From positions 1-52,283 of the forward strand of contig CALQFM020000024.1 of the NCBI GenBank assembly GCA_943329845.2: a stretch of 52,283 bases of DNA, read 5' to 3'. Within the stretch, counting starts at the first letter, position 1, and each line of letters opens with the position of its first letter. Positions 6,652-48,878 of the stretch are shown here, piece after piece. Below the pieces are notes generated by a model. The model was not told the origin of the DNA. It was given only the letters and a program-made list of their open reading frames with translations, and ran no database searches. Source of the DNA: Candidatus Kuenenia stuttgartensis (GTDB taxonomy: Bacteria; Pseudomonadota; Alphaproteobacteria; SMXS01). The position numbers were made by a program, and so were the translations under genes.

Positions 6652-7473
6652 ATGGCCGCGAAGGTGCTGATGACGGGCGGGGCGACAGGTATCGGCGCCG
6701 CTACGGCCGCGCGCATGGCCGTCAAGGGCGCCGAGATCACCATCCTCGACGTGGCCGAACCCTTCCATGGTCACGGACGCTTCGTGGCATGCGACCTGGC
6801 GGACGCCGTGGCCATCGACGCGGCCCTCGAGGCGCTTCCCGGTCCATGGGACGCGCTGGTCAACGTGGCGGGCATTCCGGGCCCCCGGCCGGCCCAGCCG
6901 GTCGTCGCCGTCAATTTCCTGGGCATGCGCCACCTCACCGAACGGATGTTTCCACGGCTTCGGCCGGGCGGCAGCGTGACGACGATCGCGTCGACCGCCG
7001 GCCGCGATTGGGCGAGACGGGCCGCCGTGGTGAACCAACTTCTCGACACGCCGGGATTCGCCGCCGGGCTGGCGTGGTGCCGTGACAACGCGTCCCTGTG
7101 GGAGAGGGATCCCTACACCTTCTCCAAGCAGTGCGCGGCCGCATGGACCTACCGCGCGGCGGGACTGGCACTGCCATACGGCGTCCGCGTCAACAGCGTC
7201 AGCCCGGGTGGCACCCAGACGCGCCTGACGGAAAACTTCACCGCCCAGATCGGCGCCGAGCAGGTCGAATGGATGAACCGGCAGATCGGACGTGCCGCCG
7301 AGCCGGATGACATCGCCAAAGTCATCGAGTTCGTCGCCCTGGGCGACTGCGGCTGGCTCAACGGAGTCGATATCATCGTCGACGGCGGCTTGAGTGCGGG
7401 ACTGACCGGCGGCTGGATCGATTTTTCCCAGTCACCCGCGATGCTTGCCCGCGCGGCCATGAAGCGGGACTGA
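6652..7473 (+). CDS. SDR family protein resembling 3-alpha-hydroxysteroid/coniferyl-alcohol dehydrogenase
   Basis: A 273-residue NAD(P)-dependent oxidoreductase. The cofactor motif TGGATGIG is at 8-15, NVAG at about 71-74, Ser114 and Tyr155/Lys159 (YTFSK). The gap between Ser and Tyr is about 41 residues rather than the usual 13 or so. That long insertion, including the block GFAAGLAWCRD, is a hallmark of the 3-alpha-HSD/CalA subgroup, which oxidises steroid or aryl alcohols. GGAGAAG precedes the ATG at 6652. It lies in an apparent operon with the acyl-CoA ligase (16-base gap) and the MBL protein (12-base gap). Confidence 0.85.
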   Translation: MAAKVLMTGGATGIGAATAARMAVKGAEITILDVAEPFHGHGRFVACDLADAVAIDAALEALPGPWDALVNVAGIPGPRPAQPVVAVNFLGMRHLTERMFPRLRPGGSVTTIASTAGRDWARRAAVVNQLLDTPGFAAGLAWCRDNASLWERDPYTFSKQCAAAWTYRAAGLALPYGVRVNSVSPGGTQTRLTENFTAQIGAEQVEWMNRQIGRAAEPDDIAKVIEFVALGDCGWLNGVDIIVDGGLSAGLTGGWIDFSQSPAMLARAAMKRD

Positions 7474-19158: not shown

Positions 19159-19407
19159 CTAATCCTTGAAGCGCAGGGCCGCCAGCTTGCGGTCGATCGC
19201 CGAGATGTCGCTTTGCGCCCCGACGGCCGGCTCCCGCAGGGTATCGCGCATCTGCCGGCGGGTTGCCAGCTTGTCCCGCGCATCCTTGGGAAGCATGTCC
19301 ATGGTGATCACACCGCGTGCGACGAGAACGTCGATCAGGTCCTCGAGGACACGGATGAAATTCCTGTCCTGCTCGTTCATGATCTTGTCGATGATTGGTG
19401 AACTCAT
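19159..19407 (-). CDS. Conserved-looking small hypothetical protein, 82 aa
   Basis: A charged, helical protein (DLIDVLVARGVITMDMLPKD, then ARDKLATRRQMRDTL) with no signal peptide or membrane segment. I do not recognise a named family. The ATG at 19407 has GGGG about 4 bases upstream. It is convergent with the PQQ dehydrogenase, 6 bases from its stop. The reading frame is clean with alphaproteobacterial codon use, so it is likely real. Confidence 0.6.
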   Translation of the reverse strand: MSSPIIDKIMNEQDRNFIRVLEDLIDVLVARGVITMDMLPKDARDKLATRRQMRDTLREPAVGAQSDISAIDRKLAALRFKD

Positions 19408-19691
19408 TTTGCCCCGCGCCTCTATGCCCGGATCAGCTCGCCCCCATGAACGTTGGAGACCCGGGTCAGTATAACGAAGTTGGCCTCAAGCGGATACCCA
19501 TTCTAGGCGCTATAGGCGGCAAGCTCGATGTTAAGTTTTGTAAATAAGAATCTGGTCGCGCAGTGTTTTTTCGGTTCACCGCGACGTACCGTGCCGACTT
19601 TTTCTATATTCATGTCAACTCTGTGAAAATCATCTAAAACCATTGATACTATTAAGATATTCGAGCGCAGGAACTGCTTCGCCGCGCATTG
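19408..19691. other. AT-rich intergenic region
   Basis: No gene seen. The stretch 19591-19665 is about 32% GC against roughly two-thirds in flanking genes and holds runs such as TTTTTCTATATT. It could carry promoters for the minus-strand gene ending at 19159 or bind a nucleoid protein. I found no convincing sigma-70 or EcfG promoter facing left. Confidence 0.4.
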
Positions 19692-19717
19692 GGAACCGTC
19701 GCGTACAAAGGCGCGTT
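19692..19717 (+). promoter_or_regulatory. EcfG-type general-stress promoter of the 60-aa gene
   Basis: GGAAC at 19692-19696, 17 bases, CGTT at 19714-19717. This is an exact consensus match. Transcription would start near 19724, leaving a leader of about 27 bases that contains GGAG before the GTG at 19751. Confidence 0.78.
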
Positions 19718-19750
19718 TGCGAGGGGCATCAACAAGAATGGAGACTTGCC

Positions 19751-19933
19751 GTGCTATACACCGTCGGTTACCGCGTCAACGACGCGTCCGAGCACGTGAC
19801 GCTCGAGGCCGAGGATGCCCTGGAAGCCGCAAAGTTCGTGAAATCCGAACATCCGGAAGCGTCCATCACCTATTCGCGTGCGGCCAACCATGAGGAGCGC
19901 GGCGGCGAGGAGATGACTGCAAGCGGTCCGTAG
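19751..19933 (+). CDS. Small stress-associated hypothetical protein, 60 aa
   Basis: A 60-residue acidic protein starting at GTG (MLYTVGYRVNDASEHV when initiated) with a helical middle (LEAEDALEAAKFVKSEHPEA). GGAG lies 7 bases upstream. The fold looks like a small alpha/beta domain, but I cannot name a function. It is a single-gene unit: an exact EcfG promoter upstream (19692) and a strong hairpin terminator downstream (19969-19992). Confidence 0.7.
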   Translation: MLYTVGYRVNDASEHVTLEAEDALEAAKFVKSEHPEASITYSRAANHEERGGEEMTASGP

Positions 19934-19968
19934 ACGCCGATCGGCCACCTCCAGGTCGGCAAGACCAA

Positions 19969-19992
19969 CCCCGCCGGATCGCTCCGGCGGGG
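19969..19992 (+). terminator. Hairpin terminator after the 60-aa gene
   Basis: CCCCGCCGGA and TCCGGCGGGG pair over 10 bases around the loop TCGC. They are followed by CTGATTT, a weak T tract. It lies 35 bases after the stop at 19933 and before the convergent DUF1236 gene, so it may serve both strands. Confidence 0.65.
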
Positions 19993-20020
19993 CTGATTTG
20001 AACGTCGCTCGAGACCGAGC

Positions 20021-20350
20021 TTACCAGACGTGGACGATACGCCGACTGCTGCGCTCGACGACCATCGGCTTGTTGTTGATGATCGTGTAGCTGTAGCGGT
20101 CTGGATCCTGCACTTTCATGGTTTCCGGCAGGGGATAGACCGCGATCGTGCCGGGCAGAACCACGCCGACTTCCGCGTTCATGGCGGGATCGGTAATCGG
20201 CGCATATTTCTTGGTGGTCGAATATTCCTTGATCACGGTCCCGTCTTCGGCTGTCCAGGAGGTCGTGGTCGTCGTCGTGGTTTCGGCGAAGGCAACGCCA
20301 GCGCTCAGCAGCGCGGACGCGGTAACGATCGAGAAAAGGAATTTCTTCAT
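20021..20350 (-). CDS. Secreted DUF1236 domain protein
   Basis: A 109-residue exported protein. The signal peptide MKKFLFSIVTASALLSAGVAFA is followed by a Thr-rich strand, then a short domain ending YTIINNKPMVVERSSRRIVHVW, which matches the usual end of DUF1236. Its function is unknown. The ATG at 20350 is chosen because GGAG lies 5 bases before it; an ATG at 20362 is too close to its own upstream region. An exact EcfG promoter stands 76 bases upstream, so expression under stress is expected. Confidence 0.85.
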   Translation of the reverse strand: MKKFLFSIVTASALLSAGVAFAETTTTTTTSWTAEDGTVIKEYSTTKKYAPITDPAMNAEVGVVLPGTIAVYPLPETMKVQDPDRYSYTIINNKPMVVERSSRRIVHVW

Positions 20351-20425
20351 CGGTAACTCCATCTTGCCGGATGAGTGGGTCTTCCTGGGCGGCGGAGCGG
20401 CAACGCCGATTCAGATCGCGACCTA

Positions 20426-20450
20426 AACGAATTGTGCACGGTGAAGTTCC
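20426..20450 (-). promoter_or_regulatory. EcfG-type promoter of the DUF1236 gene
   Basis: On the minus strand: GGAAC (20450-20446), 16-base spacer, CGTT (20429-20426). Exact consensus. The predicted start site is near 20418, leaving a leader of about 70 bases before the ATG at 20350. Confidence 0.75.
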
Positions 20451-20488
20451 GCGGGTGATGACGCGTTGGCCGGGAGGCGGCCTAGTCT

Positions 20489-20674
20489 TCAGATACGGAC
20501 ATTGCCGATCGCGCCCAACAGGCCGAAAGCCTGCAGCAGCCAGATGATCACGGCGATGACCACGACGATGTTCAGGATCTTTTTGATCTTCGCATCCATC
20601 GGAATGTAGGCATTGACCAGCCACAGCAGGATGCCGACGACGACGAGTACGATCACTACATGCAGCAGAGGCAT
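20489..20674 (-). CDS. Thivi_2564-type small membrane protein, 61 aa
   Basis: Two transmembrane helices: LHVVIVLVVVGILLWLVNAY and ILNIVVVIAVIIWLLQAF, separated by the polar turn IPMDAKIKK. This pattern is the Thivi_2564 family of inner-membrane proteins of unknown function. AGGAGA lies 4 bases before the ATG at 20674. An exact EcfG promoter lies 85 bases upstream, which fits a stress-response membrane protein. Confidence 0.85.
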   Translation of the reverse strand: MPLLHVVIVLVVVGILLWLVNAYIPMDAKIKKILNIVVVIAVIIWLLQAFGLLGAIGNVRI

Positions 20675-20758
20675 GTCTTCTCCTGTTAGATGCGCCGGTG
20701 AACGGGACTGTGCCTCAATCGGCGGAGCGGCAGCACCGATTGTGGATCGCTGCCTGAG

Positions 20759-20784
20759 AACGTAGAACCTGTGCCGGATGTTCC
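20759..20784 (-). promoter_or_regulatory. EcfG-type promoter of the Thivi_2564-type gene
   Basis: On the minus strand: GGAAC (20784-20780), 17-base spacer, CGTT (20762-20759). Exact consensus. Transcription would begin near 20752 and read toward the ATG at 20674. Confidence 0.75.
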
Positions 20785-20904
20785 GTGCCAGCGCCGATCC
20801 ATCAGCACCGGATTTGTGGTATCCTGGCGGCTGGTAGCTTGCTGACCTGTGCGCATGATACGCGCGATATGGGCCACATTTCGCCCAGGATGGAGACGGA
20901 TGGG

Positions 20905-21240
20905 ATGCGAATGAAAGCTTTTTGGGCGATCCCGTGCCTGGTCGTGCTGATCTCGGCATGCACACAGGAAACCGACGCGGAGCACAAGGAGGCTTATGAG
21001 GCGGGATACGCCGACGCCTCCGTCAAGCTCAAGAACGTGTATGAGCGGAGGGTCCAGGAGATGGAAGCCACTCATCGTCGCGAGGTGGAAGTCTTGAAAT
21101 CGCAGATTCCGGGACCATCCCTCACGCAGAGCACGGAAATTTGCGGTGTCGATGGCGCCAACGTCAATGGCCGCCACATCGATGGCGGCAAAACCGGTTG
21201 CGTACGCATGTATAGCGATGGGCGGTACGAGCGCTTCTGA
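20905..21240 (+). CDS. Small lipoprotein with coiled-coil segment, 111 aa
   Basis: An exported protein with lipobox LISAC, so Cys19 would be lipidated. A charged helical region follows (AEHKEAYEAGYADASVKLKN, then ERRVQEMEATHRREVEVLKS), then a Gly-rich tail with two cysteines (CGVDGANVNG and TGCVRMYSDGRYERF) that may form a disulfide. I do not recognise the family. GGAG lies 8 bases before the ATG at 20905; ATGs at 20890 and 20911 are in frame. No EcfG promoter was seen for it. Confidence 0.65.
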   Translation: MRMKAFWAIPCLVVLISACTQETDAEHKEAYEAGYADASVKLKNVYERRVQEMEATHRREVEVLKSQIPGPSLTQSTEICGVDGANVNGRHIDGGKTGCVRMYSDGRYERF

Positions 21241-21313
21241 GGGCGAAAGCGGTTGGCAGTGTTGGTGAGCCCGTTGGATCGGCGTGGACGCCGTTCTCTT
21301 GCCGGGGATCTTC

Positions 21314-21598
21314 CTAATGCCGGCCAAGGATAAGCGACGTGTTGATGCCGCCAAAAGCAAAGTTGTTGGACATCACGAATTCGGCATCGATCACGCGCGA
21401 CGCGCCGGTCATGTAATCGAGGGAACCGCAGGCGGGATCGGGATCCTGCAGGTTGGCGGTGGGCACGAACCGCGCCGCCCGCATCATCTCGATGGCGAGC
21501 CACGCCTCAATGGCGCCGCACGCGCCGAGGGTGTGGCCGAAATAGCTCTTGAGGGAATGCATCGGCTTGCCCGCGCCGAGGACCAGCCCGTCACGGGC
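21314..21598 (-). pseudogene. Beta-ketoacyl-ACP synthase (FabF/FabB-like) C-terminal remnant
   Basis: The minus strand encodes the last 90 residues or so of a KAS enzyme. It includes the catalytic-lysine/His region KPMHSLKSYFGHTLGACGA, then EAWLAIEMM and the end VMSNNFAFGGINTSLI. The N-terminal 300 residues, including the active-site Cys, are absent. Upstream of 21598 similarity stops abruptly. It lies back to back with a TPR remnant, so both look truncated by one deletion. It is probably not functional. Confidence 0.8.
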
Positions 21599-48257: not shown

Positions 48258-48878
48258 ATGCGTAATGAACTGCTCGCCTTGCTGTGTATCTTTTTCCTGT
48301 CCGGAGGCGTGGCCATGGCGACCGAGGAACCTGCCTTCACCGTCGTGCTTGGCGAAGACTCGTTCGAAGTCCGCGACTATCCCGGACTTGTCGCCGCGGA
48401 AGTGAGCGTCAGCGGCACCCGCGACGCAGCCGCGAATGCGGGGTTCCGGTTGCTTGCCGGATACATCTTTGGCGGCAACACCCGGCGTCAGAGCATTGCC
48501 ATGACGGCGCCCGTCGTGCAGGAGCGCGCCACCGGCGAAACCATCGCCATGACCGCGCCCGTCACCCAGTCCGGCGGGGCCGGCGCGTGGGTTGTTCGCT
48601 TCATGATGCCGGGCAAATACACGCTGGACACGCTCCCGACGCCCAACGACGCACGCGTTCGTCTCGTTCCCCTCCCGCCGGCGCGCTATGCCGTGGTGCG
48701 ATTTTCCGGCCTGGCGCGGCCGGCCGAGGTGGAGCGCAGGACCACGACCCTGAGGGCCTTCATCGAGCGGCGGGGCCTTCGCGCGCTTGGCCCTCCGTCA
48801 CTCGCACGCTACAACCCGCCCTGGACGCCCTGGTTCATGCGGCGCAACGAGGTCTGGATTCCGATTGAGCGCGTATGA
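48258..48878 (+). CDS. SOUL-family heme-binding protein
   Basis: A 206-residue exported protein. The signal peptide is LLALLCIFFLSGGVAMA. The SOUL/HBP domain is seen in FEVRDYPGLVAAEVSVSG, IFGGNTRRQSIAMTAPV and the final PPWTPWFMRRNEVWIPI. SOUL proteins bind heme or tetrapyrroles, and their role in bacteria is unclear. The ATG at 48258 has no ribosome-binding site, and an exact EcfG promoter points to a leaderless transcript. Confidence 0.88.
   Translation: MRNELLALLCIFFLSGGVAMATEEPAFTVVLGEDSFEVRDYPGLVAAEVSVSGTRDAAANAGFRLLAGYIFGGNTRRQSIAMTAPVVQERATGETIAMTAPVTQSGGAGAWVVRFMMPGKYTLDTLPTPNDARVRLVPLPPARYAVVRFSGLARPAEVERRTTTLRAFIERRGLRALGPPSLARYNPPWTPWFMRRNEVWIPIERV

What the first reader, a model, noticed from the sequence alone, without database searches (positions are those of the whole stretch)
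19692..20784. Three exact EcfG promoters within 1.1 kb, each facing a small gene
GGAAC-N16/17-CGTT occurs at 19692-19717 (+), 20450-20426 (-) and 20784-20759 (-). Each points at one start: the 60-aa protein, DUF1236 and the Thivi_2564-type membrane protein. For a 9-base pattern with two spacers on both strands, chance predicts about 0.8 in the whole 52 kb at equal base use. Clusters of such small genes form part of the alphaproteobacterial general stress response. The 60-aa protein has no known function and would be a stress-induced candidate.
Basis: partly seen in the sequence, partly recalled or inferred. Interest (0 to 1): 0.75.

Follow-up and report, generated by a model that had tools for sequence, protein, structure and literature searches.

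The report
Stress-sigma promoters with shared leader element
Three small genes side by side carry what are very likely switches for the general stress response of alphaproteobacteria, and two of them, encoding unrelated proteins, also share an unexplained 20-letter stretch at the start of their messages that is kept in related genomes.

Summary
In detail: GGAAC-N16/17-CGTT is exact at all three places. The window has six such sites, not three (shuffles 0.67); none of 359 permuted patterns reaches six. The genome has 94 (reversed control 49). By my gene caller 58 of 94 lie outside genes (about 15 expected), 50 of them within 250 nt of a same-strand start. Downstream genes include CsbD, PRC-barrel, hemerythrin, SOUL and Fe-SOD. 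NepR and an ECF sigma gene beside an HWE kinase are present. The site before the 60-aa gene is exact at -55 to -59 in four genomes. EcfG control is well supported but untested by expression.

New: the DUF1236 and Thivi_2564 leaders share ATCGGYGYTGCCGCTCCGCC just after the promoter. It is exact in 3 of 50 EcfG leaders here; the other 47 have at least 6 mismatches. Eight of nine DUF1236 leaders of the genus have it with 0-3 mismatches. No Rfam match; 0 of 17 model matches outside the genus have an EcfG motif. RNA structure is not supported over shuffles. Function open.

The parts
19692..19717 (+). EcfG-type promoter of the 60-aa gene (GGAAC-N17-CGTT); expected transcript start about 19724 (inferred)
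   Evidence: exact in 4 genomes at -55 to -59 and in a fifth at -92; degenerate in G002
19751..19933 (+). 60-aa conserved protein without a family, predicted beta-beta-alpha-beta
   Evidence: orthologues in 5 of 6 other genomes of the genus; no Pfam or NCBIfam match; best model mean pLDDT 78.6, pTM 0.56; no significant Foldseek match
20426..20450 (-). EcfG-type promoter of the DUF1236 gene (GGAAC-N16-CGTT)
   Evidence: exact motif before 9 of 9 DUF1236 genes above cut-off in the genus
20391..20410 (-). shared 20-nt leader element, copy in the DUF1236 leader (ATCGGCGTTGCCGCTCCGCC)
20021..20350 (-). DUF1236 protein, 109 aa, with what looks like a signal peptide by eye
   Evidence: PF06823 47 bits, cut-off 32.4
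20759..20784 (-). EcfG-type promoter of the Thivi_2564 gene (GGAAC-N17-CGTT)
   Evidence: exact at the orthologues seen in G003, G006, G007
20721..20740 (-). shared 20-nt leader element, copy in the Thivi_2564 leader (ATCGGTGCTGCCGCTCCGCC)
20489..20674 (-). Thivi_2564 family membrane protein, 61 aa
   Evidence: NF041949 79.1 bits, cut-off 33
   Evidence: an exact motif lies before the hemerythrin gene in G003 and G007 too; PF01814

Best explanation
The three sites are promoters of the alphaproteobacterial general stress sigma factor EcfG. Under stress an HWE-type kinase drives PhyR to take NepR off EcfG, and EcfG-RNA polymerase then starts transcription about seven bases after each CGTT, making the 60-aa protein, the DUF1236 protein and the Thivi_2564 membrane protein together with perhaps 40 or more other genes (50 candidate sites, some of them chance). 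In the DUF1236 and Thivi_2564 mRNAs, whose proteins are unrelated, the first 35 or so nucleotides carry a common 20-nt element. Its most likely role (about 50%) is a shared post-transcriptional control site, bound by a small RNA or protein or acting on translation or stability, which sets these genes apart within the regulon. Shown by sequence: motif, position, conservation, genome-wide enrichment, the shared element. Inferred from established knowledge of the EcfG pathway: EcfG dependence and transcript starts. Pure inference: the function of the element. The confidence below is for the promoter part; the element's role carries its own 50%.
For: Motif exact and clustered beyond chance. 94 sites genome-wide against 49 for the reversed control; 58 of 94 outside genes, 50 of 94 outside genes and within 250 nt of a same-strand start, null 16.2%, binomial 4e-23. 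Ten downstream genes, chosen of 50 because they looked recognisable, are hemerythrin, SOUL, a sigma-70 factor, CsbD, DUF1328, PRC-barrel, Fe/Mn SOD, DUF3096, DUF4142 and topoisomerase IB. NepR twice (47.8 and 26.3 bits, cut-off 25.7); an ECF sigma gene next to a response regulator, an HWE kinase and nepR; intact phyR divergent from nepR in G002 and G004, and beside an HWE kinase in G005 and G007 (PhyR model over cut-off for the two tested, G004 and G007). Conserved site before the 60-aa gene and before 9 of 9 DUF1236 genes. Leader element: exact in 3 of 50 EcfG leaders, at least 6 mismatches in the other 47; best 20-mer identity between leaders 18-20 against a shuffled maximum of 15-16; the 8 hits with 0-1 mismatch in seven genomes all lie in such leaders. 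GGAAC-N16-CGTT is the published GSR motif of Sphingopyxis granuli (PMC7083833, passages) and GGAAC-N17-20-GTT that of Sphingomonas melonis (PMC6599016, passages).
Against: No expression data. phyR is not intact in this assembly: the contig ends beside nepR after about eight recognisable codons. Which ECF gene is EcfG is not settled: four places match PhyR_sigma2, and the one in the stress locus has the lowest score of the four (47.7 bits). The motif before the 60-aa gene is degenerate in G002, lies further off in G004, and is absent at the second copy in G005 and before four more distant homologues. For the element as RNA: leader MFE is no lower than in shuffles (z from -1.4 to +1.1), Shine-Dalgarno pairing is no higher than in shuffles, and covariation of the hairpin is at the shuffled level.
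Confidence: 0.85

Rival explanations
1. The shared 20-bp element is a DNA operator: its dyad CGGYG-N9-CGCCG just downstream of the promoter binds a transcription factor that blocks or tunes EcfG transcription of these genes.
For: The dyad arms are nearly invariant in 13 leaders; cells paired are 80.8% against 20-53% when the arms are slid, yet no covariation beyond shuffles is seen, as a DNA dyad would also give.
Against: The distance from CGTT to the dyad varies from 15 to 20 nt, which a protein acting in a fixed geometry with polymerase would tolerate poorly. In the seven genomes searched no copy with 0-1 mismatch lies outside these leaders.
Confidence: 0.3
2. The element is a relic: promoter plus leader was copied between neighbouring genes and has simply not diverged yet.
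For: The DUF1236 and Thivi_2564 genes are neighbours in this genome and in G007, and the two DUF1236 copies are paralogues.
Against: The promoter spacer and much of the rest of the leader have diverged while the 20 nt stay alike in two non-homologous genes across several species.
Confidence: 0.2
3. The three motifs are chance matches in GC-rich DNA and the genes use other promoters.
For: About half of the 94 genomic matches are expected by chance.
Against: Cluster and position, conservation at orthologues; 0 sigma-70-like sites in 19400-21000, though shuffles give only 0.8.
Confidence: 0.04
4. The element encodes a conserved upstream peptide (LPLRR-like) or an N-terminal extension.
For: By eye, the element reads CTG/TTG-CCG-CTC-CGC-CGN in one frame in most leaders.
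Against: By eye, from the GTG the frame ends in a stop before the gene in the own Thivi_2564 leader but runs into the gene in those of G003 and G007; not all substitutions are synonymous; no evident ribosome site before it.
Confidence: 0.03

Closest known systems
EcfG (RpoE2, SigT)-dependent promoters of the alphaproteobacterial general stress response
   Same: GGAAC -35, CGTT -10, spacer 16-17, mostly short leaders, CsbD, PRC-barrel, SOD and small envelope proteins downstream; NepR and HWE kinase in the genome.
   Different: Two leaders here (three in the genome) carry a further common 20-nt element, which I did not find in the passages read of PMC6599016 and PMC7083833.
GsrN, the SigT-dependent small RNA of Caulobacter that pairs with mRNA leaders (PMC5869019, passages)
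   Same: Precedent for post-transcriptional control of general-stress mRNAs at the 5' leader.
   Different: GsrN has a C-rich loop and G-rich targets; here the leader itself is C-rich. No partner RNA was identified.

Membership tests
EcfG-type promoter | GGAAC -35 and CGTT -10 with 16-17 nt spacer | tested here: met
EcfG-type promoter | Located upstream of a start, on the same strand, enriched outside genes genome-wide | tested here: met
EcfG-type promoter | Conserved upstream of orthologues | tested here: met
   60-aa gene: exact in 5 of 6 genomes that have it, degenerate in G002; DUF1236: 9 of 9 genes; Thivi_2564: 4 of 4 seen in the genus, partly circular, 0 of 2 outside it
EcfG-type promoter | NepR and an EcfG-like sigma factor encoded in the genome | tested here: met
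   NepR 47.8 bits, cut-off 25.7; ECF sigma with Sigma70_r2, Sigma70_r4_2 and PhyR_sigma2 matches beside an HWE kinase. Assignment to the EcfG group itself was not tested, and three other places score higher on PhyR_sigma2.
EcfG-type promoter | PhyR encoded in the genome | tested here: inconclusive
   no intact phyR in this assembly, contig ends beside nepR; phyR over the NCBIfam cut-off in G004 and G007
EcfG-type promoter | Transcription depends on EcfG | not testable with these tools
   needs RNA-seq or reporter work
DUF1236 (PF06823) | Profile score above gathering cut-off | tested here: met
   47 against 32.4 bits
Thivi_2564 family (NF041949) | Profile score above curated cut-off | tested here: met
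   79.1 against 33 bits
Known Rfam leader or small RNA family (for the shared element) | Match to any of 4227 Rfam models | tested here: not met
   0 matches up to E 5 in 19400-21400; seven further loci, most holding leader copies, gave only two tRNAs and two sub-threshold reverse-strand matches to them
Structured RNA regulator (for the shared element) | Stability or covariation beyond shuffled controls | tested here: not met
   the hairpin does exceed slid versions (80.8% of cells paired against 20-53%)

The most novel reading that the evidence does not exclude
A genus-specific second layer of general-stress control: a 20-nt leader element, placed immediately downstream of EcfG promoters of unrelated envelope-protein genes (DUF1236 and Thivi_2564), ties them into a sub-regulon through an unidentified RNA or protein partner. 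One possibility is that its CUCC segment masks the GGAG ribosome site until stress releases it.
Probability: 0.45. Interest if true: 0.6.

Novelty: new member of a known kind. Interest (0 to 1): 0.42.

Why it matters
It assigns a 60-aa protein without any family, and two poorly known envelope families, to the general stress response, and gives a list of about 50 candidate EcfG-controlled genes for this genome. The shared leader element is a concrete, small test case for whether alphaproteobacteria add a post-transcriptional or operator layer to subsets of the EcfG regulon, for which GsrN is the precedent I met in print (PMC5869019, passages).

Tried and rejected
RNA switch hidden in the leaders: by eye the 3' half of the element can pair with CGGC and GGAG at the ribosome site, and one genome (G004) seemed to have compensating changes. 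Ensemble folding of 13 leaders against 200 shuffles each gave no excess (SD pairing at or above the observed value in 8-99% of shuffles). RNAalifold kept only a five-pair hairpin with no two-sided change. Counting eight pairs, two had a two-sided change, against a shuffled mean of 1.6. Kept only as a possibility.

Search for the element outside the genus: the covariance model matched 21 of 385 class genomes at E 0.01, 17 of them outside the genus. A first check looked at the most element-like 20-mer of each locus and even missed the true site in G004, so I repeated it at the exact model coordinates: the G004 control shows its motif, 0 of the 17 has an EcfG-like motif (up to one mismatch) just before the element, and 12 of 17 lie inside called genes. 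The best of the 17 (G345, E 3.6e-5) is not inside a gene and has no motif. The model search used strict filters and scored 15 candidates in nearly every genome listed, so distant copies may have been lost.

Partner small RNA: eight orphan EcfG sites without a start within 250 nt were examined; duplex energies with the element run from -13.9 to -33.2 (L104), no shuffled control was run, and I name no candidate. One orphan turned out to point antisense into an mmgR RNA.

Upstream peptide: rejected by frame and by the kind of substitutions seen (by eye). Function of the 60-aa protein from its fold: 0 Foldseek matches at E 0.001, no solved relative by sequence (best E 0.51).

Limits of my counts: the Thivi_2564 leaders of G003 and G007 came to view through the motif beside the 60-aa gene and that of G006 through the element, so their 4 of 4 is partly circular; the independent family search covered a class sample in which G004 and G005 have no such gene. 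The DUF1236 count (8 of 9 with 0-3 mismatches, the ninth with 8) comes from an independent family search. My gene caller is home-made; the 58/36 split depends on it, and it set at least two starts wrongly (L158; hemerythrin in L041). The null of 16.2% comes from the window alone.

Full report
Observation. The three motifs are real and exact. The window holds six exact matches, not three. Chance predicts 0.67 by dinucleotide shuffling, with 0 of 100 shuffles reaching six. With the letters of the two boxes permuted, 0 of 359 control patterns reach six, and of 360 patterns only the true one has three sites within 1.1 kb. In the whole 3.68 Mb genome there are 94 matches against 49 for the reversed pattern, so the motif alone is about half noise and position must carry the argument.

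Genome context. I classified all 94 matches with a home-made codon-score gene caller: 58 outside genes, 36 inside; 50 of the 58 have a same-strand start within 250 nt. A random 25-mer in the window is outside genes 16.2% of the time, giving a binomial probability of 4e-23. Ten of the downstream proteins, which I chose of 50 because they looked recognisable, match Pfam families hemerythrin, SOUL, sigma-70, CsbD, DUF1328, PRC-barrel, Fe/Mn superoxide dismutase, DUF3096, DUF4142 and topoisomerase IB. In Sphingopyxis granuli the published GSR motif is GGAAC-N16-CGTT with csbD, catalases and an mscS channel among targets (PMC7083833, passages), and in Sphingomonas melonis GGAAC-N17-20-GTT, enriched within 100 bp of the start (PMC6599016, passages). 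Here 35 of 50 lie within 100 nt.

The regulator. NepR is found twice above cut-off, at 47.8 and 26.3 bits (cut-off 25.7). The better copy lies at the end of contig C6 beside an HWE kinase, a response regulator and an ECF sigma factor with a PhyR_sigma2 match. Three other places match PhyR_sigma2 with higher scores, one of them with a stop inside, so which gene is EcfG is inferred from location. PhyR was not found intact in this assembly. Intact-looking phyR lies divergent from nepR in G002 and G004 and beside an HWE kinase in G005 and G007; of these I tested G004 and G007, and both pass the NCBIfam cut-off of the PhyR model. The own contig shows only about eight matching codons before it diverges and ends, so an assembly break is the likely reason.

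The 60-aa gene. Orthologues occur in 5 of 6 other genomes of the genus and in 0 of 3 other genomes of the family; at 71-90% identity to the window protein they form a clean alignment. In a class sample of 385 genomes, 8 match, 4 of them outside the genus and weaker. The one named relative found is a metagenome-assembled Sphingomonadales bacterium. The EcfG motif is exact at -59, -57, -55 and -57 in the own genome, G003, G007 and G005, and at -92 in G004; in G002 it is degenerate, and at the second, diverged copy in G005 it is absent. No motif was seen before the four more distant homologues, whose starts I did not establish. The protein has no Pfam or NCBIfam match. Its predicted fold is beta-beta-alpha-beta, with residues 1-40 at about 87-91 mean pLDDT from a two-sequence alignment, and no solved structure matches significantly.

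The two minus-strand genes. DUF1236 (47 bits, cut-off 32.4) and the Thivi_2564 family (79.1 bits, cut-off 33) are confirmed. A family search found nine DUF1236 genes above cut-off in the genus, and all nine have an exact GGAAC-N16/17-CGTT about 96-108 nt before the start. Two further matches below the cut-off have no exact motif. Thivi_2564 is rare: 3 of 289 genomes of the class, and the two outside the genus show no exact motif.

The shared leader. Between promoter and start the DUF1236 and Thivi_2564 leaders, of unrelated genes, share ATCGGYGYTGCCGCTCCGCC. A pattern search of seven genomes finds it exactly three times in this genome: in these two leaders and in that of a second DUF1236 gene on contig C4, again behind an EcfG motif. 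All 8 hits with 0-1 mismatch in the seven genomes lie in such leaders, and 1 of 5 with two mismatches; with up to three mismatches the totals are 82 hits and 82 for the reversed control, so weak matches mean nothing without their place. Of the 50 EcfG leaders of this genome, 3 have it with 0 mismatches and 47 have at least 6 (some of these leaders are under 40 nt). The best 20-mer identity between leaders is 18-20 against a shuffled maximum of 15-16, also where the genes are unrelated. In the independent DUF1236 set, 8 of 9 leaders have it with 0-3 mismatches; in G004 it is changed, with 8. The distance from CGTT to its CGG is 15-20 nt in 13 leaders, which places it entirely in the expected transcript. 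It has no Rfam match. Outside the genus 0 of 17 model matches have an EcfG-like motif just before them and 12 lie inside called genes.

What the element does. I first thought it was an RNA switch masking the ribosome site. The controls do not support that: folding energies are not lower than in shuffles, SD pairing is not higher, and covariation equals shuffled, although the hairpin is better paired than slid versions. Its sequence conservation is strong, its structure unproven. A post-transcriptional site (RNA or protein partner) is my first choice because it lies in the transcript at a variable distance from the promoter; a DNA operator is second, a relic of promoter copying third. GsrN in Caulobacter is the precedent for leader control in this response (PMC5869019, passages).

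Print. I searched a library of open-licence papers for EcfG with DUF1236, motif, leader and hairpin terms, for DUF1236 alone (3 papers) and for Thivi_2564 (0 papers). In the listings I saw nothing that describes this element or links these genes to EcfG; I read passages of three papers only, and most subscription papers are not covered.

Verdict. The leader element is what deserves follow-up.

Noticed in passing
L004 1501-1525 (-), G000:C1:88745-88769: An orphan intergenic EcfG motif points antisense into an mmgR/suhB small RNA (RF00519, L004 1413-1491 +). The motif is exact in G006, has one mismatch in G007, and was not found in G002, G003, G004 and G005, suggesting possible stress-induced antisense control of mmgR in some species.
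   Followed up: partly
L111 3142-3167 (+), G000:C30:27641-27666: An EcfG motif faces, by eye, a 22-codon ORF with a ribosome site encoding a single hydrophobic helix (MNNIIYIVGLVVVVGAVLAFVF), a candidate stress microprotein (sequence).
   Followed up: no
L047 about 7100-7336 (end of contig C6): phyR seems to start (about eight matching codons by eye) and then diverges up to the contig end; no intact phyR found elsewhere in the assembly.
   Followed up: partly
window 19969-19992: A perfect 10-bp inverted repeat (CCCCGCCGGA-TCGC-TCCGGCGGGG), seen by eye, sits between the convergent 60-aa and DUF1236 genes and may be a shared terminator; the scan lists no terminator here, presumably because the T run is short.
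   Followed up: no
window 48645-48670 (-): The sixth exact motif lies antisense inside the SOUL gene and is probably chance.
   Followed up: no
L043 (G005:C1 around 609000): A second, diverged copy of the 60-aa gene, without a start codon at the usual place or an EcfG motif, lies beside a DUF1236 gene that has both motif and element, as if the cluster had been duplicated and partly lost.
   Followed up: partly
window 19520-19660: The stretch upstream of the 60-aa promoter looks unusually A+T-rich for this genome, and the same is visible by eye in G003, G007 and G005.
   Followed up: no
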